A program made the position numbers and the translations under genes. A stretch of 64,000 bases of DNA from Cubamyces lactineus (Eukaryota; Basidiomycota; Agaricomycetes; Polyporales; Polyporaceae): positions 1,116,001 to 1,180,000 of the forward strand of contig JACDTU010000006.1 in NCBI GenBank assembly GCA_022376465.1, given 5' to 3'. The notes beneath the pieces were generated by a model that saw nothing but the letters and a program-made list of their open reading frames with translations, had not been told where the DNA came from and ran no database searches. Of the stretch, positions 1 to 39,680 are shown in pieces (positions within the stretch are counted from its first letter, which is position 1; every line of letters begins with the position of its first letter).

Positions 1-974
1 GGGCACGACGGCATCCGTCATCCTCAATCTGTTCAGCGACGCGCTGCTTGTACGTTCGCGTGCCCATGTGTTCGTCTGCGCGAGGCGAAAACGCTGATCG
101 CACATTGGTGGCAGATATACCGGATGTACGTCGTCTGGACGAGCTATTATGTGATCATGTTCCCGTGCTTCCTGTACGTGGCCACCATCGGTAAGTCACT
201 CCGATCGTCCACCTGCGACCCCCGCATCACCTCGCTCACCCCATGTCTTCCCACCTCTCTTTCCCCGCCGTCCCTGACACATCGTGAATGCTACTGAAGC
301 GCTTGGCATCATCGAGCTGTACGCATCCGGGAAGCCCGACGCAGACTTCTTCGTCGGGACCGCGGCCCAGCTCGGGGTCGCGTACTACACCACGACCATC
401 TCGCTCAACGTGATCGCGACGGGCGTGATCTGCGGCCGCCTGGTCTACCTCGGGCGCGCGCTCGAGGCCGCACGCAACACGCAGGGCCGCGGGAAGGGCG
501 TCGTGCGCTACACGGGCACGCTTTCGATCGTCGTCGAGTCTGCGCTCCCGTACAGTATGGCGGGCTTTGCGTTCCTCGTCGCGTATGGCATCGAGAGCGA
601 CATCTCTATCCTCTTTGGCGCGCTCTACGGCATGTTCACGGTGAGTTTTCCCCCTCGCGACCACTCTCGACCACTCCCTTGGAACCGCTCGCTGCCGAGC
701 GGTGGAGTGGAGAGGAAACCTTGAATACCGGACTGGAGCTGATCTTCTTTGACTTCGCTAGTGCATTTCGCCGCAGCTTATCGTGCTGCGTGTGGTCACC
801 GGGCAAGGGTGGACGAAGGACCAGACGGCGCAGTCAGTCTCGGCGCTCGAGTTTGAGAACTTGGGCGCGTCGCGCTCCGCTGCCGCCACTACCGCCATCG
901 AGACGGCCGCCCAGTCTGAGGGCACCTCCACCATGGACCACAAGTCGATCGGTTCGGCACATGACATGGTATGA
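1..974 (+). CDS. Multi-TM fungal membrane protein, 5' end outside window
   Basis: This is the C-terminal part of a polytopic membrane protein. Exons read 1-49, 115-190, 300-640 and 762-974, joined in frame. They encode several hydrophobic helices, a YASGKPDADFFVG loop, the segment MFTCISPQLIVLRV and a polar Ser/Thr-rich tail ending at TGA 972-974. It is a clear paralogue of the complete gene at 38371-39680, which guided the splice choices. It differs by one extra intron (191-299) inside the first helix after the YVVW motif. I recognise a family typical of basidiomycetes with about seven predicted helices, but no assigned function. A receptor-like topology is possible and unproven. Confidence 0.75.
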
Positions 975-7016: not shown

Positions 7017-7472
7017 TCACCCAGTAATGATGTACTGAAACTGCAGCTCGCTCCTGGCAGCGAGGACGAAGACGACGCTGTCGTTGTGACGCCAGCCAAG
7101 GTCAATCTCGAAGCGTGGAGCACCGACTGAGCCGGGAGCAGCCGTCTTTGGGCTGATAGCGGCGTTGACCAACTTGACTCCAGGCTCGTTATCCAAGAGG
7201 CGCATGAGCAGGTTACGGAACGTGACAGCAAACTGGAACTTCATCGTCATCGGCGGAAAGGCTTCGCGAACGATCTCGTAGTTGGCTTCGCCAGCATCAT
7301 CGAAGGGGTCCTTGGTGATGTCTTCGTCGAACTCGACGTACACGCTGGCGGATGTGTACGCAGGGATCACAGCCGGGAAGTCCCAGGCATTCATCTGGTA
7401 CGAGTGCTGGTATGTCCTTTTCCAATCGTACTGAGTCGCGTTGCAAAGAACAAGGTATCCGCCTTGGCCCAT
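7017..7472 (-). CDS. Small uncharacterised MGQGGY-type protein (copy 1)
   Basis: This intronless frame of 151 aa begins MGQGGYLVLCNATQYDWKRT. It continues with QHSYQMNAWDFPAVIPAYTS, a SVYVEFDEDI strand, a GEANYEI segment, FQFAVTFRNLL, and a C-terminal FEIDLGWRHNDSVVFVL followed by a short tail. It looks like an all-beta, soluble cytosolic protein with no signal peptide. Two paralogues lie in the window: 34249-34653, intact, and 23152-33066, disrupted. An in-frame upstream ATG (7523) exists, but the same stretch is out of frame in the 34.2-kb copy, so the conserved MGQGGY start is preferred. I know related proteins as common and unnamed in Agaricomycetes; no function is claimed. Confidence 0.75.
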   Translation of the reverse strand: MGQGGYLVLCNATQYDWKRTYQHSYQMNAWDFPAVIPAYTSASVYVEFDEDITKDPFDDAGEANYEIVREAFPPMTMKFQFAVTFRNLLMRLLDNEPGVKLVNAAISPKTAAPGSVGAPRFEIDLGWRHNDSVVFVLAARSELQFQYIITG

Positions 7473-8097
7473 GATGCTGTGGGACGCGTCAGCAAAAGCG
7501 CTCCATGGTGGCGATTGTCTCATGCTTGCCTTGGAGTGTGTTAGTTGCTATATGAAAGTAGCTTGAGGTGAGAGCTGTAGAAGTCGACTTGCATTGTTCA
7601 TATTTATACTCAACGGTTCGAGCCCTTAGCAATGGTCAACAACCGCGACAACATCTTGGACGTATTGCAATTCGTCGCAATTCGGCAATTTCGCAACAAA
7701 CGTCGCACATATCGCTGCCTCCGAGGTCCTCCCCGACCGTCGCTGACTGAGGATTGTGCTACACAATCTTGCCACCACTGTAAGTCGACCCCAAGTGGCC
7801 TACGCCAAGGCTCGAGGATCACGAAATATTCGGCATTAGACTGTTAGCGCCCGCCGGTCCTACCTATCGGAATCGGAACTGCATGGGTAGAGTACCTCTT
7901 AGCTCCGGCATCAAGGCTCCCTGTGGGTGTTGTAGCTGTGTCCCGGAACAACATGCGACGATATGTAGACGTTGTATGTTTGGGATTCTTGACGCGCCCT
8001 CGTGAAGGCCGCGTTGAGAGTACCGACTGAAGGGGTAATGCGTCGATTTGCTGCTTGGCATGCGCGCAACGGCACAACTTGGCACCTATGCCGATCG
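7473..8097 (-). promoter_or_regulatory. Duplicated upstream region of MGQGGY copy 1, with TATA box
   Basis: Read on the minus strand, this stretch is clearly homologous by eye to 33630-34248 in front of the intact 34.2-kb copy. Shared blocks include a GGTACTCTACCCAT-like block, CGTGATCCTCGAGCCTTGGCG and GTCGCGGTTGTTGACCATTGC. Both copies have TATAAATA at an equivalent place (7608-7601 here). Conservation of some 600 bp of non-coding DNA shows that the duplication carried the promoter along. Confidence 0.65.
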
Positions 8098-8446: not shown

Positions 8447-8518
8447 TCCGATATGGTGTAACGGCTAACATTACCGCCTTTCACGCGGTAGCTCGGGGTT
8501 CGATTCCCCGTATCGGAG
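8447..8518 (+). tRNA. tRNA-Glu (UUC)
   Basis: This is a 72-nt cloverleaf. The acceptor stem TCCGATA pairs with TATCGGA. The anticodon stem ACCGC/GCGGT encloses loop CTTTCAC with anticodon TTC at 8480-8482. The T arm contains GGTTCGATTCC. No intron is seen. Confidence 0.93.
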
Positions 8519-8825
8519 CGTACTTTTTCTCCAGTTTGGTGAGCCCGTCATACTGCTTGGTTTTGACCAACTTACATCGATTCGGATTCGAGTGTATCCG
8601 TGAAATTTTGTTGAATGGGATGCAGCCCACTACTATTGCCACTCTCCCCAAAGCCGACACATGTAACGGTACACTTGTTAACACGACTACCCAGGACTAA
8701 GACGTGATATCATTATCGGGTCCACGAAAACTGGTCATGGATGGCTATACTCGTATCAGTAATATCCTACCACTCTCCACTTCCGGAACTGACCTCTCAT
8801 GTGACAGGTAGCAGTCAAAGGGCTA
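8519..8825. other. Intergenic, no gene seen
   Basis: A short AT-richer stretch lies between the tRNA and the first peptide gene, with nothing recognisable. Confidence 0.4.
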
Positions 8826-9067
8826 TCAAAGCCAGCAATTCTCGACATGATCTTCTCGCCTCCCTGGTGATATTGCACAGGAGCAAATTCAGGTTCCATA
8901 TGCCGCGTACGCTCTGGCTAGGGTATCATCGTCTACTCACCGACGTCGTTACTGGGAGGGTCGCCACAGTCAATGTCGGTACCGGGCGCAGGCGCGGCAG
9001 CTACGAAGCCAACGCTGAGCGATGCGAGGACGATCGTGAGAACGAAGGCTCGAAGTTGGACAAGCAT
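8826..9067 (-). CDS. Small secreted Kex2-type peptide precursor 1 (ends RR-EDHVENCWL)
   Basis: Exons 9067-8941 and 8863-8826 (165 nt) encode 54 aa. Residues 1-25 form a signal peptide (MLVQLRAFVLTIVLASLSVG...AA) followed by an AAPAPG stretch and a short pro-region with one Cys (TDIDCGDPPSNDV). The phase-1 intron (77 bp, GTGAGT..CCAG) is followed by an exon reading GRREDHVENCWL and stop. The RR dipeptide is a classical Kex2-type cleavage site and would release EDHVENCWL. Two neighbours (9593-9846 and 10938-11194) have the same exon layout, intron phase and terminal peptide, which supports both the splice and the reading. No known family is recognised. The window alone does not show expression. 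Confidence 0.7.
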
Positions 9068-9592
9068 TGTCGTGCCACGTCTTGGAAAACTTCAGCGTAT
9101 GGGTACAGTGCGACCGGGAAGTCGGAAGGTGTCTTTTCCCTGGCACGCACAAACCCACTTTATAGTTTTGGCGATAGCACTCGGGCCAAATAGCCTCACG
9201 GCATGAACGGAATATGCTCGATCCAGCCCCAAGATGTCGCGTTCCTTTGGATATCCTCCTGTCGTATGGGATCTATCCATAGATGGCGCGCAGTCGCGGG
9301 CGCGAACGCTCACATACCGCCTGCGAGCCACTGACAACCACCAACCTTGAATATAGCCAGATCTCTCGTTGTAAGCGGTGATTTCATCGCCACGAATGCT
9401 GAAATCTCTAAGAGGTAGCTGCTGAACCCGAACAATGCTTCAATTTCCATACAAATGCTCCGTCTACGGCCCTGCCTCATGCTAATCTTTCGTACCCAGT
9501 AAGCGACCCATCCTTGGAGATAATATGGCATGAGGCTTCTGCGTAGCGGGTTACAACAAACATGACTACCTTCGCAGACTATCCATCAGCCT
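9068..9592. other. Spacer between peptide genes
   Basis: This presumably holds the promoter of precursor 1 and the 3' end of precursor 2. No other gene is seen. Confidence 0.4.
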
Positions 9593-9846
9593 TCAGAGCC
9601 AGCACGACTCGACGTGTGACTCGCTTCGTTTCTCTATTGCAGAAGGTGAGCGGACGTCTACAGTCGTAAGATCTCGCACACTGACGGATACGCACGTTGG
9701 ATCACGCAGTCCGAAGCGTCCGTAGTAGGGGGCGGCACTGGGGCGGCTCCCACCGAGATAGCAAGGCCGGCGAGCGCGAAGATGACCAAAGCCATTTTGA
9801 AGAAGGATAACGTCGAATAGAGTTCGCGTTGACGCTGTTGTTGCAT
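9593..9846 (-). CDS. Small secreted Kex2-type peptide precursor 2 (ends KR-SESHVESCWL)
   Basis: Exons 9846-9696 and 9633-9593 (192 nt) encode 63 aa from the ATG at 9846. An in-frame ATG at 9795 would give a shorter signal peptide starting MALVIFALAGLAISVGAA. The hydrophobic core is followed by APVPPPTTDASDCVIQ with one Cys, then a phase-1 intron of 62 bp. The last exon reads QKRSESHVESCWL and stop. KR is a Kex2 site and the released peptide would be SESHVESCWL. Reading through the intron instead gives an unrelated tail ending EILRL. The spliced form is preferred because it recreates the terminal motif of the two sister genes. Confidence 0.7.
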
Positions 9847-10937
9847 GGTTCGCCGCTGACGGGTCTGATAGAGGGTGGTTCGCGCTCTTGTCGAGCCCGC
9901 GAGAACGCCAGGAAGAGAAGGATCGATGCTCCCAGAGTGTCTCACTGAACTATTCTTATATCTCCAGTCTTGTTCGCTCTCGCGTCAATCGGCCAGGTGA
10001 GCCCTTCGGTACAACGCCTCCGCGAGAGTGTCGCTCTGAGGAAGGTCATGGTGCCTCGAGAGGGGCACTATCGCCTTTGTCTGTAATTGAAAACGGACAG
10101 TTGACAGCAATGAACGGGCATTTCTCCTCGTCTTCTGAGCTTCGCAGCTTCGTGATGCATTTCCTCAGTATGTCCGTATCCCTTCCAGGACAGAGCCTTC
10201 GCAGAACCCCTTGTCTGTTCAGGAGTGGTCACGACCATATGTCATTGCAATGCAGACAGATACCGCGCGGACATGTGCGCAATCCTAGGATGACCGCCAC
10301 CAAGTCGCCGCTTGGCACGTCAATGGGTGACAAGCGTGAGCAAGGGTTACTTGCGAGATTGGTCAGAGGGCTTTGGACTGCGTCTGGGTCATTACTGCGG
10401 CCTCCCGATAATCCGACGACGGATAGGTATGGATGCCAAAGCCGTACTTTGGCGGCAATGGGCCTGACTTGTAGTATGTACCGCTCAAGTGAGTCACTCG
10501 GGAGTGTAATCCGATAAGGCCAGATTCTGACTGATGTTTCAACGAAGGTGGTCCCGTGTATATCTGAACCAGTATGGGCCTCGGGCACTATCACCTCGGG
10601 CATAATGCTTAATGAATCGGTACGACCCATAAGCGGATCGACTAGACGTGCTCTACTGCTCTACTTCTCACAGTGAGCGGACTCAACGGTCACCCAAATC
10701 CTTCAGTAGGTTCACTCTCGCGTTCACGTCAAGACACAATGTACATATATACAATCAGCTTCAATAATATACATGCTAGAGCGCTAAAGTCTCAACAATG
10801 CCCTCCGGCGCCCTCTAACATTGGCATATTCCTAAGTGCGGGTGTTCAATCTGTAGTCTCAGAGAGGTTACGCTAACTCTCACCTTGGCGCATGGAGACA
10901 GACACCGAGAAGCCCTACTGGCACCGACGTTCGACGT
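9847..10937. other. Spacer between peptide genes 2 and 3, no gene seen
   Basis: Open frames here overlap on both strands without recognisable domains, signal peptides or conserved splice patterns. Confidence 0.4.
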
Positions 10938-11194
10938 TCAGAGCCAACAGTTCTCGATGTGTTCGCTACGCTTTGCCGCTGCCGGAGCAATCGAACGTCA
11001 GTACGATCGAATTGCACAACGTCCGGCCCAGCCAGCTGATCGCTGCCATATGTATGGTGGCTCCAGCTGACTGTAAGACACTCACGGTCGGCGGCAGCTT
11101 CGCAGGGCTGCGGCGCCGGTGCGGCGCCCACCGCGGAGGCCCCGGCGAGCGCGAGGATGACGAAAGACAGAATGGACACGGGTGAGAAGCGCAT
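10938..11194 (-). CDS. Small secreted Kex2-type peptide precursor 3 (ends KR-SEHIENCWL)
   Basis: Exons 11194-11086 and 10978-10938 (150 nt) encode 49 aa. The signal peptide is MRFSPVSILSFVILALAGAS..GAA, then APAPQPCEAAAD with one Cys, a phase-1 intron of 107 bp (GTGAGT..GGCAG), and a last exon reading PAKRSEHIENCWL and stop. KR marks the predicted Kex2 cut before SEHIENCWL. As in the sister genes there are exactly two Cys, one before and one after the dibasic site. The AP repeats after the signal peptide resemble targets of X-Ala/X-Pro dipeptidyl peptidases. A promoter lies beyond 11194, with a purine/pyrimidine-skewed leader. Function is unknown. Confidence 0.72.
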
Positions 11195-13351
11195 CGTGTG
11201 CTGCTGTGTGTCTTTGGGGAGGCTTCTCTGTCGAGTGTGTGCTATGTGTGTCGAAGGGGAAGTCGACAGAAGGAGAAGCACCGAGGGAGGGCCTGAGGGA
11301 AGCTGGCGGGCTTCTGAGGCTTGCCTGCACTCGCTCGCCGTTGGAGGCCTCCTCATATATCCTCCCTGCTTCCCGCTCTCCGTGGATTTGTCTTTGTCTG
11401 TTGAGTGCCGGATGACCGCAGTCGGCCGCTGCACCTCGCTACAGAGAGCACGAGACGTGCGCTGACCAGACTTTCCACGCTCAATAGCAAAGCGTAAGCA
11501 CACTGAGGACGAATGCGGCGGAGAGGCACTATCGGGCGTGGGCGGTGTGATAGCATCAGCGCAGAGGGCGTGCTTCCTCTGCCTTCTCGACTTCTTGATG
11601 ATGGTGGGTTCCGCTCAGGGACTTTGTACCTATGCACGATGTGCACGAATTCTGTTAACGAGCAGCGTGCAGATGAATTGTCGCCGTACTACATGTGATG
11701 TGCTCGAACCCCTCTCATGCCATGAACAGAGAGCCTTCATTTTAAGGAGGTTTCGACGTAATAGTGGGCGCTAAAAGGTGATGCGACTCGGACGATATGC
11801 AGTAGCCTGTACGAATGAAGTTGTATGTCGCCACAAGGACGGTGTATAGCCCCCCGGAGTCTAGAAAGGTATGACATTAGCTTGGCCCGGCGGCATGTCT
11901 GATGGCTCACACGATTGCCTCCGTGGTGAAGGAGGTATATGACTCGACTATGGCGACATGGTTACAATTGGCCCAAGTCAGGTTCACTAGTGGTGGATCT
12001 TCAAAGATGGGGTACGCTGAGCATGGGATCCAGGCGCGGTCACATCTCAGTGCGCAGATGGAATTTCTTTTTTCACATTCTGTTATGCCTTGGAAGTGCC
12101 TTACAGGCGGCGGGTGTTAGACTTGGTGCCAAGGCCCCGCCTGCAGCTAAGGGGAGGCAATGGCGGGCCAGTCAGTGGATGTACCGTCAGATGTAGCGGA
12201 TCATACTCACAAAGAGATCAATCAGTACAGGGCAGCGAGCGGTGGGTCTTCATATTCAGCGAATCCCATATTCCTTGAAGTCTCACCCTTGTAAGTACCT
12301 GGCGAAACTGAATGGCGCGCTCAAGCGGATGAACAAATGGTCGCTGCCCATACGAGCGAATTCAATATGCGGGTGTCTAATCGCAGACGCATACGCCCCC
12401 AGGCACACAGTCAGGCCAGCCAGGAGAGGGCCAGGTTGGCGACCATAGGTGAGAATCTCGCAATTCTGGGAGATCCTAGCCTGGGTCGTTTGGCTACCAC
12501 GATCAGAAATATCCTCGACGTCCGGTGATCCCTGTGTCCTTCGCCATAGCCTCAACGCAGATCGCAACTGAGTTGGGACCTGCGTTCCACGGGCCTTGGG
12601 GCAGCGGTCAGTGCGCACGGCGTTTGGTCTACTGCGAATGTTCTCACATTGGATGTTCCGTACATGCCTTCTGCTGCTGCTGCTACGCCGTTCCGTGTGG
12701 TCCTGCGCAGCGACGGGCACGCGTCAATGAAAGATCGCCTTGATTCTGGAGAAAAAAGACCCGGTTGAACGCCAGTACCCAGCAGCGTTTACTAATTCAG
12801 CATGACTGGTGAGTAGCCCCGTCCGCACTATCCTTGACGCTAATGCCTTACATACCTATTATGATGCCAGTGATTGAAGATGTGCATGAACAGTACCGCT
12901 CTCAAAGGCTGCTGCCACAAATATCGTTGCGATCTGTTTGGGCGGTGCGCATATAGTCACAACAGTACTTGAGCCACCCCAGTCACAGCGTTCGCTCAAG
13001 CCTCGTATCGAGTCTGTATTACGAGAACATACGAGCTTTGCGCATCATGGATTCTTCCAAGAGCTGGGTGGATGAAGTCAAGACTCAAGAGCCAAGAGCC
13101 AAGGTCGCCGTCATCGCTCGCGCGCTCGTCATTGGCGCCTACGTGGGCGATGGCGGGGAGAGTGACCTCATCTCTCTCCTCGTCGCCACACTCGATCGTC
13201 CACTCACCGATGATGTCAACCCTCGACCTCCCGCCTCGCGAGCCTATAAAGACCACGTCGTCGACCATGGCCAGCGGCGAACAACGTTGACGACTTCCAT
13301 CGCCCATCCAACTCCTATACCACACACTCATCTCGCAAGCACGACTTGAAT
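11195..13351. other. Intergenic, no gene seen
   Basis: About 2.1 kb separate the last peptide gene from the first lectin gene. No coding or RNA signal is supported. The start of the lectin transcript probably lies near 12990-13340. Confidence 0.45.
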
Positions 13352-13950
13352 ATGTCTCTCGAGGGCGGAAAGACCTACAAGATCACGAACGCCAAGGGCG
13401 GAACTGTCCTTGACCTCTCTGGTGGCCAGGAGCACTCACCAATCACCGGCTACGCGTGGCACGGCGGTGCGAACCAGAGGGTATGCGTCTCTCGCACGTC
13501 CGTATGCCACGAACTCGCTGACTTGGAACTCATAGTGGACACTTGAGCAACATGGTGACGCATACCGTTTCAAGAACGCCGCAACGGGCCTCTTCATCGA
13601 CGTTGACGGCGAGCCCAAGAACTTCGCGCCCATCATAGCGTCCACAAAGTGGTCGGACTGGGAGATCAGGCCGGACCACCAGGATCCCTCGACGTTTAGG
13701 TACGTGCATGCGTCAAGCCCGCCGGCACGCGCACCTTCTGACCTTGGCACGATAGAGTATTCCTCAAAGGCACAGAATACTGCCTGGACCTGAGTGATCA
13801 CGGGAACCCGAACCCTGGTACGCCCGTGACGCTCTGGAAGAAGTGGGAAGGCGGAACGAACCAGACCTGGAGGTTCGAAGAGGGTGAGTGGTTCGCGCCC
13901 GCTACTTCTCTTGGCAACTTCGCGCTCACTCTCACTCGTCAGCTGCGTAA
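13352..13950 (+). CDS. Ricin-B-like (beta-trefoil) lectin 1
   Basis: Exons 13352-13480, 13536-13699, 13756-13883 and 13943-13950 sum to 429 nt, or 142 aa. This is the size of single-domain fungal ricin-B lectins such as CNL of Clitocybe nebularis. The three trefoil repeats are readable: GGKTYKITNAKGGTVLDLSGG with GGANQRWTLEQ, then YRFKNAATGLFIDVDGEPK with WEIRP, then FLKGTEYCLDLSDHG..TPVTLWKKWEGGTNQTWRFEE. QxW motifs are present in repeats 1 and 3. There is no signal peptide, as usual for these cytosolic lectins, which bind glycans and are often linked to defence against fungivores. Sugar specificity cannot be read. The tiny last exon (AA-stop) is supported by the same arrangement in lectin 2. 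Confidence 0.87.
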
Positions 13951-22550: not shown

Positions 22551-23151
22551 AATAGTTGGGTGCGGGCGGTGCTAGGCTACATGCAACTGCGAGGAGTCCG
22601 CGTCAATAGGGTGGCCGTGAGGCGTACGATCCGAAGGGGGATCGTCGCTACACAGTGTTGACACAAGGCCGGCTTTTTGCATTTTTACTCACACGTCTGT
22701 CCAGAACAGAGCCACAGATGCTGTAGTAAGTGCTGATACTAAGGCAACAAGAGAACGCACCTGCGTAAGTCCGCCCCCGGTGAGTAGGGCCGATGGGTAC
22801 TGACAGTCAAACACCGCAAATTATGTGATTGAGAACTTGTGGTCAGGTCACCTGTACATCCACTGGAGCAACAAAATGGACGTTCATTTCATTTCATATT
22901 TGAACGACGACCGGCGTGAGTACCGCGGGAGCAAGGTGTCGACGTTTGCGGGGAATACACCTTACAGCGATATTCCGTGCTACCATGTCATCTAGAGCAG
23001 GTATAAGAAGGAGAAATACGCGACAAGTTCTACAGCACCCATTGAGAGCTCCAGAAGAACGACGAGGCGACCTCAAGGTGGGTGCCATTGAACGACTCCT
23101 CACAGCGATCAACTTACACCGAGTCCTCCACACAGAACAACAAGCGCCATC
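22551..23151. other. Intergenic and promoter of disrupted MGQGGY copy 2
   Basis: A GTATAAGAA TATA-like box near 23005 and a CT/AC-rich leader precede the ATG at 23152. This promoter is not visibly related to those of copies 1 and 3. Confidence 0.4.
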
Positions 23152-23456
23152 ATGGGCCAAGGCGGATACCTCACCATCTACAACGCGACGCAGTACAACT
23201 GGCGCAAGACGTACCAGCACTCCTACCAGATGAACGACTGGAACTTCCCCGCTACCATCGCCGCGTTCTCCTCCGCGAGCATATACGTCGAGTTCGACGA
23301 GAGCATTGGCAAGGACACCGGCGACGATGCGGGCGAGGCCACGTTCGAGATCGTCGGTGCGCCCGCCGGACAGGCCCAATTCCAGTTCGCGGTCAAGTTC
23401 CGCGACCTGTTCACGCGCCTCCTCGAGTTTCCTGCGGTTGCCGCCGGTTCTAACGT

Positions 23457-25056
23457 CATCTGGAAAACCCTCCCCCGCGGAATCTTGAGGAATCCACGGA
23501 ATCCACTGGAATCCATCGGATTCCGACATTCCAGATATTGGCCACTGCAGAATCCCGTACATTACGCCAAATTCTGGTAGAATATAGCTGCTCTGTGAAA
23601 CATATTCAGGGCGTACCAGAGTGGCAGACGCAAACTGAGCTCCTGTATGTCTCAATTTGATCGCGTGCTGAGCAGTGTCAGTAAGATACCTTTACAGAGC
23701 CTTTACGGCCGGGTGTGCATGCCCGTGATTCAGAAGCAGATGACGTTGATAGTGTTCCGCTCACTATACTGTATGATTGGCTACTGAACAAGGGCTCTTT
23801 TGGTCTTAGAGGACGCCATCGACGAAACCACAGGTTAGCGGTTGAACTATAAATATGAATACGCCCAGGCGTGGGCAGAAACAGTCACTGATGTCGAGTA
23901 GTAGCCACGAGGGTACCTGTTGTCGAGACACCAAGTCGAAAGCCGCCTGCCCTGAACATGGGCGCCTGTTTGCGCTGACGCGCTGGCAGCCCTTGCGCGT
24001 GTTGCAGCTTGCTCTCATCCTCCGTGACGAACCTTGCTCCGGAAACTTGGTAGGCTCCCTCTTCTGCTGCTGTGCCCTACGTTGGCTATGATGAAGTTTC
24101 TATGCCAGCTTTCAAGCCGATATGAAGCTAAGCTGCGTGTAGGCTCAGTGACGTCGAGTCTCAATGCAGGTGAGTAATGCATCTTTTGGCGGAGTATCAT
24201 CACAGATCCCAATCAGTGAGTCCTTGTTGCATACTGTGAACGTCAGCGTATGCAGTCCTATCTCCACTTTGCCCCCGACGTCGTCTTGTACCGTTCCGGC
24301 AAACGTCTCAGAAGTATGAGAATACTCTCAGACACCCAGCCCTGTGCGCGTCAGTCTCATGGAATGATATCTTGCCATCTTTTGCTCATATGCCCCAAGG
24401 ATGCCTCAGCCACAGCTCGCTGGGGCCCATGGCTCCCCACCAGGGCTTGACAGGTAACGGCACTGAGCCCTCTACTCAAATGTGGTATTCAGTTGCTGGG
24501 ATAGGTGAGTCTGATCACCGAGTTCAGCGGTGATCCACGTTCTGCCCAGGGTAGTGCCCTCATGATATAAGCTCCCGTATATTGTTTTATATGCCTGGAT
24601 CAGCGTAAGTCTTGCGGTCACCTGTAATATATCCTCATCGCTATTGATTACTTTCTCCCGTTGCAGATGTTGTGCACAAGACTACAGCACCCGCTTGTCT
24701 CAACACTAAGTGCTACGGTGGGAGTGCGTGGGGGTGTGATTGAACGGCTAGTATTGCAGTAGCTAGTGTAATTAGTAATAGTAGTGACATAGTAGTGTCC
24801 CGTGTCTTCTGTATATGTATATGTAGATCGACTCATCATATATATTTTTCATCACCGTGAACTTATCGAGTGGATTTGAGAGCGAGGAATCCACCTAAGC
24901 AGCATAGAATCCACAGGTTTGTGATGGATTCCGGTGGATTCTAGCTCTGTTTCAGCGGAGGCTACTGTTTCTGGGATATTCCACCGTCCGTGTTGGAATC
25001 CATGGAATTCAGTGGATTCCGGTGGATTCCTCAAGATTCTGCGGGGGTGGGTTTTC
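23457..25056. mobile_element. Non-autonomous TIR DNA element (last 6 bp at 32953-32958)
   Basis: The left end, from 23457, and the reverse complement of the right end (25056 leftward, continued after the LTR insertion by 32953-32958) share about 60 bp. The shared stretch is CATCTGGAAAACCC, a C-rich block, then GAATCTTGAGGAATCCA and further GGAATCC words. Total length is about 1.6 kb with no transposase frame. It is flanked by a 2-bp direct repeat (GT or AT, not resolvable because the TIR end is palindromic). Multiple subterminal GGAATCC/GGATTCC words resemble transposase-binding repeats. It is the oldest insertion in the stack. Confidence 0.7.
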
Positions 25057-25400: not shown

Positions 25401-26192
25401 TTAGAACGCGTACTCCTCCATATCTGCAAGAGCGGCCGTGCCAGCAGGCGCGATGGGTGCGACGGGTGCGATGGGTGCGACGGGTGCGAGCGGACAATTG
25501 GCCTGGTAATGCCCCTTCTGGGCGCAACGGTAGCATGTGATCATGGACAGCGGGACGCGCGGGCGAGCAGCAGCAGTGACAAGTGCGGGTTCATTTCCGG
25601 CAAGCGTAGGCGACATGATCGGATTCTGGCGAGATTCTTCGTTCAGGAGGCGGTTGACAACGTAGTCGAATGTGAGGGATTCATCAGGGGTGGAGTCCAG
25701 GGTTATGACACATTGTTCATATGACGACGGCAGACTGCCCGTCAGTACAACAATGCAGTCTTCGTCAGTGAGGTTGACGCCAATTTTGGTGAGTTGGAAG
25801 GCGGCGCGACGGACGTCTCCCACCCATGTCGACATCGACTGGTCAGGGCGCATCGCCATCTGGAAGAACGCACGGCGACGGGAGAGGCGCGTACCAAAGC
25901 CACGAGCTTGGTGCAACATTTTGAGATCCTCCCAGACATTAGGGGCGTCCATGCTCTTGATGTGTGGGAGCTGCGACGGCTCAACATTGAGGATTATCTC
26001 CGCACGGGCTTCATCGGACTTCCGTTTCCATGGTTTGACAGTCTTCGCATTCGGTGAGCCAAGTGGCTTAGTGTCCGCGCTGGAGGCAACGTCCCAGAGG
26101 CCCTTCCTTACCAGGACGGCCTCCATGAGCATCGACCATTTGGCATAGTTCGTTTCGTTCAGCTTCAAGATCGACGGTGACATCTTCGACAA
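25401..26192 (-). CDS. Copia-type Gag polyprotein (UBN2-like) with zinc knuckle
   Basis: The frame is 263 aa. It opens with LNETNYAKWSMLMEAVL, the typical Copia Gag beginning (substrate-like LxxxNYxxW motif). A helical UBN2/retrotran_gag-type core follows (WKRKSDEARAEIILNVEPSQ, the AMRPDQSMSTWVGDVRRAAF helix, LTGSLPSSYEQCVITL). Near the C-terminus is a CCHC knuckle, CYRCAQKGHYQANC (C-x2-C-x4-H-x4-C). A PVAPIAP repeat follows and the frame stops at AF*. No protease, integrase or reverse transcriptase follows before the LTR, so the element depends on another element for mobility. The frame is uninterrupted. Confidence 0.9.
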   Translation of the reverse strand: MSKMSPSILKLNETNYAKWSMLMEAVLVRKGLWDVASSADTKPLGSPNAKTVKPWKRKSDEARAEIILNVEPSQLPHIKSMDAPNVWEDLKMLHQARGFGTRLSRRRAFFQMAMRPDQSMSTWVGDVRRAAFQLTKIGVNLTDEDCIVVLTGSLPSSYEQCVITLDSTPDESLTFDYVVNRLLNEESRQNPIMSPTLAGNEPALVTAAARPRVPLSMITCYRCAQKGHYQANCPLAPVAPIAPVAPIAPAGTAALADMEEYAF

Positions 26193-26368
26193 GATTCGAT
26201 CGGGTGGGCGTCAATGGGGTAGGGTTTGACAGCGAGCCAGCAAGGTCAATCGGTGTGTCGCGGCAAGGGTAGGGGGGGTTCAATCGAGTCGACGCGGCCA
26301 GACGAGGTCAATCAACGTGTCGTCGAGGCGGGTGCTCCGAATGCCCTCGGAGCGGGGTCACGTGTTTG

Positions 26369-38370: not shown

Positions 38371-39680
38371 ATGGCTGACCAGAATGCCGTCTTTCAAAAC
38401 TGCTTCTATGTAGGCAACAACTTCAATGCCATCCTCTACGGTGAGCCCGCAATCTCCGCGATCAGTCCTGCTATTGTGCGTTCTTCGACGCATCGGTCGT
38501 CGCTCGATCACGAAGTGCCGATCCACCACTCGCTGTGGTTCCAGGTTCCACCTTCTCGCTTCCTGCTGTTGTGCATCCAAAGTCAAGCCGCGCACGAGCA
38601 TCCTCTGATCACCCTCTTCTCGCCTCCGCAGGCATCGAGCTCTTTCTGTACTTCGAGAGCGTTAACACCATCCTCGCGAACAGAGACCGCACCGGCGGCC
38701 TCGACCGCCGCCTCTTCCTGCACTTCTCCACCGCCCTCCTCCTCCTCATCACCGTCTACGTCGCCGTCCAGGCCGTCTTCGGCCAGGAGATGTGGATCGT
38801 CCACGCCGACTACCCCGGCGGCTCCGCCCAGTACCTCGCCGACAACGCCGCAGTCTGGTACCAGACGCTCGGCAGCGCCGCCTCCATCGTCCTCAACCTC
38901 ATGAGCGACGGGCTCCTGGTGCGTCCCCCTCTCCTCTCTTCGATCTCGAAGCTCCGAACGAGGCACCGACGGGAGAGATCTGCGTCCGCAGCTGTACCGA
39001 TGCTACGTCGTCTGGGGCGACCTGCGCGTCGTCCTCCTCCCCAGCCTCCTCTACCTCGCGACCGCCGCGCTGGGCATCCTCACGTGCTACGTCTCGGGCA
39101 AGCCGAACGCGGACTTCTTCGTCGGCCGCGCGCAGCAGGTCGCGCTCGCGTACTCCACGGTCGTCATTGGCCTCAACGTGCTCGTCTCCGCGCTCATCTC
39201 CGGCCGCATCCTCTTCCTCGCGCGCCAGATGCAGGGCGCGCTGGGCGCGGAGACGGTGCAGGCGTACACGGGCGCGGCGGCGCTTATAATTGAGTCTGCG
39301 CTGCCGTATACGCTGTTTGGGATCGCGTATGTGGTGTCGCTGGGGCTCAATAGCCCGACGTCGATACTCTTCCTCTCGATCTACGTCATGTTCACCGTGC
39401 GTATTCCTCCAGCTCATGGTTTCTCGATCCCTACTAAACCCACTTCCAGTGCATATCCCCACAAATGATCGTCCTCCGCGTACTGCGGGGCCGCGCATGG
39501 TCCCGCGAGTCCGCGATGTCCCGCACGCGCACGGGTATGCAGTTCACGACGCCCGTCGGGGACCCCAGCATGCTCGAGTCCGGGTACACGAGCGGGGACG
39601 GGAGCACGACGGTCAACCTGCGGACGATCAGTCGGGCTGAGTCGGTGACGCCTGCGTTCGATGCGTTCGATAAGGTGTGA
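38371..39680 (+). CDS. Multi-TM fungal membrane protein (complete paralogue)
   Basis: Exons 38371-38440, 38632-38918, 38992-39396 and 39450-39680 sum to 993 nt, or 330 aa. The N-terminus MADQNAVFQNCFYVGNNFNAILYGIELFLYF leads into about seven hydrophobic helices. Landmarks are RRLFLHFSTALLLLITVYVAVQ, VLNLMSDGLLLYRCYVVWGD, SGKPNADFFVG, ALIIESALPYTLFGIAYVV and MFTCISPQMIVLRVLRGRAW. The C-terminal 60 residues are polar (SPMLESGYTSGDG-like). It is the paralogue of the gene at 1-974 and lacks one of its introns. The family is widespread in basidiomycetes and unassigned. Receptor or transporter roles are both open. Confidence 0.82.

What the first reader, a model, noticed from the sequence alone, without database searches (positions are those of the whole stretch)
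8826..11194. Three clustered genes for Kex2-type secreted peptides with a shared xxH[VI]E[NS]CWL terminus
After splicing, the three adjacent minus-strand genes give precursors of 54, 63 and 49 aa. Each has a signal peptide, an AP-rich start, a short variable pro-region, a phase-1 intron, a dibasic site (RR, KR, KR) and the terminal peptides EDHVENCWL, SESHVESCWL and SEHIENCWL. The pro-regions differ almost completely while the last seven residues are nearly invariant. That is the pattern expected if the C-terminal peptide is the functional product. I know of no named fungal peptide family with this signature.
Basis: partly seen in the sequence, partly recalled or inferred. Interest (0 to 1): 0.88.

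Follow-up and report, generated by a model that had tools for sequence, protein, structure and literature searches.

The report
Three fungal secreted-peptide precursors near UstY
A bracket-fungus genome carries three side-by-side genes that each appear to release one nearly identical nine- or ten-residue secreted peptide, conserved in sister species and lying close to two genes of a copper-oxidase family that cross-links fungal peptides, so it may be an overlooked type of mushroom peptide natural product.

Summary
Three minus-strand, two-exon genes (9067-8826, 9846-9593, 11194-10938) encode signal peptide + short pro-region + KR/RR + EDHVENCWL, SESHVESCWL or SEHIENCWL; the motif has exact matches at these three places only in the 36.3-Mb assembly. 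Between paralogues, introns and flanks are unrelated DNA while exon 2 stays alike: an old, selected core. No Pfam family matches; the STE3 pheromone receptors found are on another contig. New: two DUF3328/UstYa genes lie about 10.5 and 15 kb away, on contigs of the same length as the peptide genes in Cubamyces, and the enzyme pair shares a contig in 12 polypore species. Best reading: single-core, dikaritin-like RiPP precursors; cleavage rests on the motif, modification is inferred. Against it: peptides were found only in Cubamyces though the enzymes are widespread, the core has no Tyr, and one enzyme lacks half of the copper motif. Published surveys demanded repeats and would miss such precursors.

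The parts
8826..9067 (-). gene A (54 aa): exon 1 9067-8941, intron 8940-8864, exon 2 8863-8826; signal peptide, pro-region with one Cys, RR, core
   Evidence: homologues P0001, P0002
8829..8855 (-). core peptide of A: EDHVENCWL, then stop
9593..9846 (-). gene B (63 aa): exon 1 9846-9696, intron 9695-9634, exon 2 9633-9593; signal peptide, pro-region with one Cys, KR, core
   Evidence: homologue P0004
9596..9625 (-). core peptide of B: SESHVESCWL, then stop
10938..11194 (-). gene C (49 aa): exon 1 11194-11086, intron 11085-10979, exon 2 10978-10938; signal peptide, pro-region with one Cys, KR, core
   Evidence: homologues P0003, P0005
10941..10967 (-). core peptide of C: SEHIENCWL, then stop
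1..950 (+). coding stretches of a hydrophobic, by eye multi-pass membrane protein that begins about C40:1115555, before the window, next to UstYa-2; possible cluster member, role unknown, no full gene model made
   Evidence: no Pfam match

Best explanation
Three old paralogues each encode a single-core secreted precursor. The signal peptide takes the precursor into the ER; a Kex2-type protease in the Golgi cuts after KR/RR and frees a C-terminal nonapeptide or decapeptide x-x-(x)-H-[VI]-E-[NS]-C-W-L. The most likely next step is oxidative modification of the core (a side-chain cross-link or hydroxylation at Trp, His or Cys) by the two DUF3328/UstYa-family membrane proteins encoded about 10.5 and 15 kb away on the same contig, i.e. 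a dikaritin-like RiPP pathway with three single-core precursors in place of one multi-core precursor. Shown by sequence: gene structure, family, conservation, neighbourhood. Inferred: Kex2 cleavage, enzyme-substrate link, chemistry, biological role.
For: Conserved precursors in two other species; a core kept while the rest drifts. PF11807 UstYa: 9 exon matches listed in the assembly (a lower bound), which I group into 6 loci; two genes at C40:1109491-1110155 and 1113599-1114281, gene A at C40:1124826-1125067. With 6 loci in 36.3 Mb, about 0.5% of random positions lie within 15 kb of one (own estimate, post hoc, the second of two families tried). Contig lengths of UstYa relatives equal those of the peptide genes: 82,492 in Cubamyces sp. 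(both enzymes, three peptides), 964,506 in C. menziesii (one enzyme, two peptides). My scan for signal peptide + intron + KR/RR + short tail finds, under its strict rule, A, B and C and nothing else in the 22.5 kb that hold enzymes and peptides, and 1 model in 201.5 kb elsewhere (rule set with A, B and C in view); no multi-core precursor seen there in single open frames or as tandem repeats. UstYa-2 keeps both HxxHC motifs, the binuclear copper site of DUF3328 (PMC12435403, abstract and passages). DUF3328 within 15 genes of the precursor is a published criterion (PMC7329392, passages).
Against: Both enzyme types share a contig length in 13 cases from 12 species, yet the peptides turned up only in Cubamyces, so the pair may have another substrate. 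Synteny in close relatives is weak evidence of function. UstYa-1 lacks the canonical motifs (0 of 59 proteins of its type have HQxHC or HxEHC). The core has no Tyr, the usual cross-linked residue. No other tailoring enzyme was recognised close by. Several genes lie between, whereas published DUF3328 genes average 3.09 genes from the precursor (PMC7329392). The precursors have no repeats, a feature of the known ones.
Confidence: 0.42

Rival explanations
1. Plain linear secreted peptides (signal or defence) freed by Kex2, without modification; the UstYa genes nearby act on something else.
For: The enzyme pair is found far more widely than the peptides; the core lacks Tyr; Umemura found DUF3328 genes near only 103 of 1680 Basidiomycota repeat precursors (PMC7329392, passages).
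Against: Two of my six UstYa loci (three of nine exon matches) lie within 35 kb of the peptides, and no other precursor was seen beside the pair.
Confidence: 0.38
2. Copper-binding peptides: after cleavage at KR/RR the free N-terminus x-x-His (EDH, SEH, SDH) is an ATCUN Cu(II)/Ni(II) site, with Cys nearby; they would sequester copper or generate radicals outside the cell.
For: 7 of 8 precursors (three here, five from Cubamyces; P0006 has no core and is left out) have His exactly at position 3 after the dibasic site; His is invariant in all 8. ATCUN as a property of an antimicrobial peptide: PMC7232333 (start of abstract in the listing).
Against: B of this genome has SESH, with His at position 4. 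Shared descent alone would keep the His in place. Nothing here measures metal binding. Compatible with the other readings.
Confidence: 0.12
3. Small secreted proteins that act whole; the dibasic site is not used.
For: Each of the 8 precursors has one Cys in the pro part and one in the core, which could pair.
Against: Pro parts differ in length and sequence between paralogues while the core hardly does.
Confidence: 0.07
4. Basidiomycete mating pheromone precursors (farnesylated CaaX peptides).
For: Short precursors, clustered, Cys near the C-terminus.
Against: Cys is third from the end, not fourth; they have signal peptides (CaaX precursors lack them: recalled); the 15 STE3 exon matches listed are all on contig C14 at 394-427 kb.
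Confidence: 0.01

Closest known systems
Dikaritin RiPPs (ustiloxin, phomopsin, asperipin-2a) with DUF3328/UstYa cyclases
   Same: signal peptide, dibasic Kex2 sites, short core, DUF3328/UstYa genes in the neighbourhood (one to five in the known pathways, PMC7329392)
   Different: single core per precursor and three precursor genes; core without Tyr, with invariant His, Glu, Cys, Trp, Leu; a basidiomycete; no tyrosinase or P450 recognised near
KEPs, Kex2-processed repeat proteins (PMC6339444, PMC7329392)
   Same: signal peptide and Kex2 sites freeing short peptides
   Different: no repeats within a precursor, so these genes fail the published KEP definition (3 or more repeats of 8 or more residues)
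Ascomycete alpha-pheromone precursors
   Same: secreted, Kex2 route, short terminal peptide
   Different: no XA/XP Ste13 spacer after the dibasic site; STE2 was not searched for; [quoted passage not shown]
Amatoxin/phallotoxin family (named only)
   Same: basidiomycete single-core RiPPs with invariant ends (recalled)
   Different: those lack a signal peptide and Kex2 site and have the core inside the precursor (recalled)

Membership tests
Dikaritin-type RiPP pathway | precursor with ER signal peptide | tested here: met
   hydrophobic signal sequence with an A-x-A type site in all three by a simple hydropathy rule of my own; no SignalP available
Dikaritin-type RiPP pathway | core set off by dibasic Kex2 site | tested here: met
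   RR, KR, KR; kept in 5 of 5 full-length Cubamyces homologues
Dikaritin-type RiPP pathway | tandem-repeated core | tested here: not met
   one core per precursor; no tandem repeats or repeated Kex2 peptides seen at the locus
Dikaritin-type RiPP pathway | DUF3328/UstYa genes within about 15 genes | tested here: met
   two genes about 10.5 and 15 kb from gene A; genes between were not fully modelled
Dikaritin-type RiPP pathway | cyclised, oxidised product | not testable with these tools
   needs mass spectrometry
DUF3328/UstYa enzyme | HxxHC(x)nHxxHC copper motif | tested here: inconclusive
   UstYa-2: both motifs, HQQHC and HAEHC; UstYa-1: HQLRC and PTRHC, so two of four His missing
KEP (Kex2-processed repeat protein) | 3 or more repeats of 8 or more residues between Kex2 sites | tested here: not met
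   definition from PMC7329392
Basidiomycete CaaX pheromone | C-terminal CaaX, no signal peptide, linked STE3 | tested here: not met
   CWL end and signal peptide; STE3 matches on another contig

The most novel reading that the evidence does not exclude
A basidiomycete DUF3328 RiPP family built on single-core precursors whose core H-[VI]-E-[NS]-C-W-L is cross-linked at Trp, His or Cys by a conserved pair of one canonical (binuclear copper) and one degenerate UstYa protein acting as a heterodimer; across polypores the same enzyme pair serves fast-changing single-core precursors that repeat-based genome mining cannot see.
Probability: 0.25. Interest if true: 0.8.

Novelty: new variant of a known kind. 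Interest (0 to 1): 0.6.

Why it matters
Surveys of Kex2-processed fungal peptides required repeats; one of them noted that DUF3328 genes accompany few Basidiomycota precursors and suggested that cyclisation might hardly occur there (PMC7329392, passages). A lichen study met DUF3328 clusters without a repeat precursor and named a single core as one possible reason (PMC12048977, passages). A conserved single-core precursor family near a conserved UstYa pair in wood-decay fungi gives a concrete, testable case: what do the UstYa proteins of mushrooms act on? The Trp/Cys/His core would also widen the chemistry expected of these copper enzymes.

Tried and rejected
Mating pheromones: rejected on C-terminus, signal peptide and STE3 location. 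Known Pfam family: none over cut-off for A, B, C, P0001 or P0005; the weak rows (E 0.054-0.29) look like chance. More copies in the genome: none found; one ESCWF-stop hit (L003) has no dibasic site, and a weak match on C3 (E 0.26) was not followed. Similar precursors beside four other UstYa regions (4 x 30 kb): none convincing; the one strict-rule model (C23) looks like chance, and a secreted Cys-rich gene at C1:888565 is unrelated. Multi-core precursors at the locus: none seen. Solved relatives of UstYa-2: none at E up to 1. AlphaFold2 models of both UstYa types were too poor for a fold search (mean pLDDT 48.9 and 56.1, from 13 and 18 sequences), so none was run. A random-region control for the precursor scan could not be fetched; regions already held served instead, and they are not random. 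dN/dS was not possible: only proteins of Cubamyces were at hand. Precursors in other polypore genomes could not be searched for at DNA level: of the collections that I could use, none that I know of holds fungal genomes other than this one.

Full report
What is there. On the minus strand, 8826-11194, three genes of the same build: A (9067-8826), B (9846-9593), C (11194-10938). Each has an exon with a signal sequence and a variable pro-region, one phase-1 GT-AG intron (77, 62, 107 nt), and a short second exon that gives RR or KR, then EDHVENCWL, SESHVESCWL or SEHIENCWL and TGA. A scan for TATA[AT]A in the 300 bases upstream finds one, at -97 of A; by eye B and C have TATAAG- and ATATAT-like stretches further up, which I did not test.

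More than chance. The degenerate pattern for H[VI]E-x-CWL-stop has three exact matches in 36.3 Mb, all here; 19 more with two mismatches, no more than the reversed control (23). Outside this fungus, the profile of A, B and C finds six proteins in a database of 5.8 billion (35 candidates scored): three of Cubamyces sp. BRFM 1775 (P0001, P0004, P0005), two of C. menziesii (P0002, P0003) and one partial, unspliced-looking relative of B (P0006). A second search with eight sequences scored 1329 candidates and found the same six. Both searches see annotated or predicted proteins only and need shared 5-residue words. The window thus seems to come from a close relative of Cubamyces/Trametes; UstYa-2 is 92% identical to the Cubamyces sp. 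protein.

What is conserved. In six sequence pairs (not independent), the part from the dibasic site on has 0, 0, 1, 1, 1 and 2 differing columns of 11-12, the pro part 1-10 of 14-19, the signal part 0-8 of 24-34. The B pair runs against the trend (1 in the pro part, 1, an inserted Ser, in the core). C against P0005 may not be a strict orthologous pair. Between A, B and C the upstream DNA, introns and downstream DNA score no better than shuffles; exon 2 scores above all 100 shuffles in all three comparisons and exon 1 only for B against C. So the duplications are old, recent gene conversion is not needed, and the core is what selection keeps. All eight full-length precursors have one Cys in the pro part and one in the core.

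The neighbourhood. The window is C40:1116001-1180000. The STE3 matches listed are all on C14 (15 exon matches). UstYa (PF11807) has nine listed exon matches: C23 at 283k and 324k, C1 at 893k (two), C40 at 505k and 508k, and C40 at 1090k, 1110k and 1114k. The last two are about 15 and 10.5 kb from gene A. I read both as two-exon genes with an N-terminal hydrophobic helix: UstYa-2 (205 aa, C40:1114281-1113599) with HQQHC and HAEHC, UstYa-1 (195 aa, C40:1109491-1110155) with HQLRC and PTRHC. Between and beside them lie two related hydrophobic, probably multi-pass proteins, a family with six exon matches in the genome, five of them on C40 within 135 kb. At E up to 0.001 Pfam finds only UstYa among the open frames of at least 90 aa in C40:1106001-1116000 (38 of 38 frames), and among 94 of 102 such frames in window 1-25000 (eight in or beside the peptide genes were left out) only ricin-type lectin and a marginal GNAT acetyltransferase match (E 0.00094). 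Right of 25 kb, 70 frames of at least 140 aa gave a copia gag and one Methyltransf_11 match (E 0.00037) whose frame I did not locate. Left of the pair, C40:1086001-1106000 holds WD40, TFIIS, mitochondrial-carrier, CaaX-protease, Piwi, short-chain dehydrogenase and the third UstYa frames. Because of introns, small exons can be missed.

Is the link to UstYa real? For: about six UstYa loci in the genome and one is here; enzymes and peptides are on contigs of equal length in Cubamyces sp. (82,492; model numbers 1329842 and 1329844 for peptides, 1329856 and 1329860 for enzymes; peptide B is 1374483) and C. menziesii (964,506). Equal length is a stand-in for the same contig, whose name I could not see. 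The strict precursor rule (signal score of at least 2.5, one intron with GTNNGT donor, tail of at most 14, at most 80 aa) finds A, B, C and nothing else in 22.5 kb, and one model in 201.5 kb of other DNA; the rule was set with A, B and C in view. The loose rule gives 15 stops in the 22.5 kb and 39 in the 201.5 kb. Against: of 101 UstYa hits, my best-match rule (identity of at least 45%) makes 59 type 1, 29 type 2 and 13 unassigned; I entered contig lengths for 35 of the 101, and 13 lengths from 12 species hold both types, among them Cubamyces sp., Trametes versicolor, T. sanguinea (locus tags 008189 and 008191), T. cingulata, T. gibbosa, T. polyzona, T. punicea and Ganoderma sinense (GSI_03248, GSI_03250). 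No peptide of this family was found in any but Cubamyces. Either the core changes fast while the enzymes stay, as in known RiPPs (recalled), or short genes were not annotated, or the pair has another substrate. I cannot decide this without those genomes.

A side result. None of the 59 type-1 proteins has HQxHC or HxEHC (36 have MHQLRC, 55 [RK]HC[LM]NY; fragments are included), while 29 of 29 type-2 have HxEHC and 22 of 29 HQxHC. CctR, a DUF3328 enzyme, loses activity when the conserved His and Cys of its HxxHC motifs are changed, and works as a homodimer with two copper ions per monomer (PMC12435403, abstract and passages). A conserved pair of one canonical and one degenerate member suggests a heterodimer, or a second function for type 1. 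This is inference.

Copper-site reading. If Kex2 cuts after the dibasic site, seven of eight peptides begin x-x-His, the ATCUN pattern; B of this genome (SESH) does not. This is a cheap test rather than a claim.

Known or new. No paper in the library holds HVENCWL. The search for HIENCWL, HVESCWL, ENCWL or VENCW gave 25 papers; in the 20 listed the first two occur 0 times and the titles have nothing to do with fungi; five were not listed. A search joining Trametes, Cubamyces, RiPP, DUF3328, UstY and peptide pheromone lists seven papers, of which only PMC7329392 names Trametes. DUF3328 with Trametes gives two papers; I read passages of PMC7329392 and only the listing of the other. PMC6339444, PMC9233826 and PMC12048977 were read in passages; the review lists dikaritins under ascomycetes. 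PMC8893723 (passages) notes 16 UstYa-like genes in Pleurotus, six developmentally expressed. Supplementary files were not opened, and most subscription papers are not in the library.

None of this changes the odds.

Noticed in passing
G000:C40:1109491-1110155 (+) and 1113599-1114281 (-), left of the window: Conserved pair of DUF3328/UstYa genes, one canonical and one of a type that lacks half of the copper motif.
   Followed up: yes
window 1-950 and 38637-38936 (+); C40:1111983-1112997: Small family of hydrophobic, probably multi-pass proteins without Pfam match; 5 of 6 exon matches in the genome lie on C40 within 135 kb, two flanking UstYa-2.
   Followed up: partly
window 7029-7490 (-) and 23146-23478 (+): Two related frames (IMGQGGYL...YQHSYQMN...) on either side of the peptide cluster, no Pfam match.
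   Followed up: no
window 13250-13543 (+): Weak ricin-type beta-trefoil lectin match, E 0.00021, below the Pfam cut-off.
   Followed up: no
window 25404-26210 (-): Copia-type gag polyprotein frame with zinc knuckle.
   Followed up: no
window, right of 25000, frame not located: One frame of 70 matches Methyltransf_11 at E 0.00037.
   Followed up: no
G000:C1:888565: Small secreted Cys-rich gene (spliced end VGPIADCTCSGKSCACSDPACKS) about 4.4 kb from two UstYa matches.
   Followed up: partly
window 8447-8519 (+): tRNA-Glu (TTC) just left of the peptide genes.
   Followed up: no
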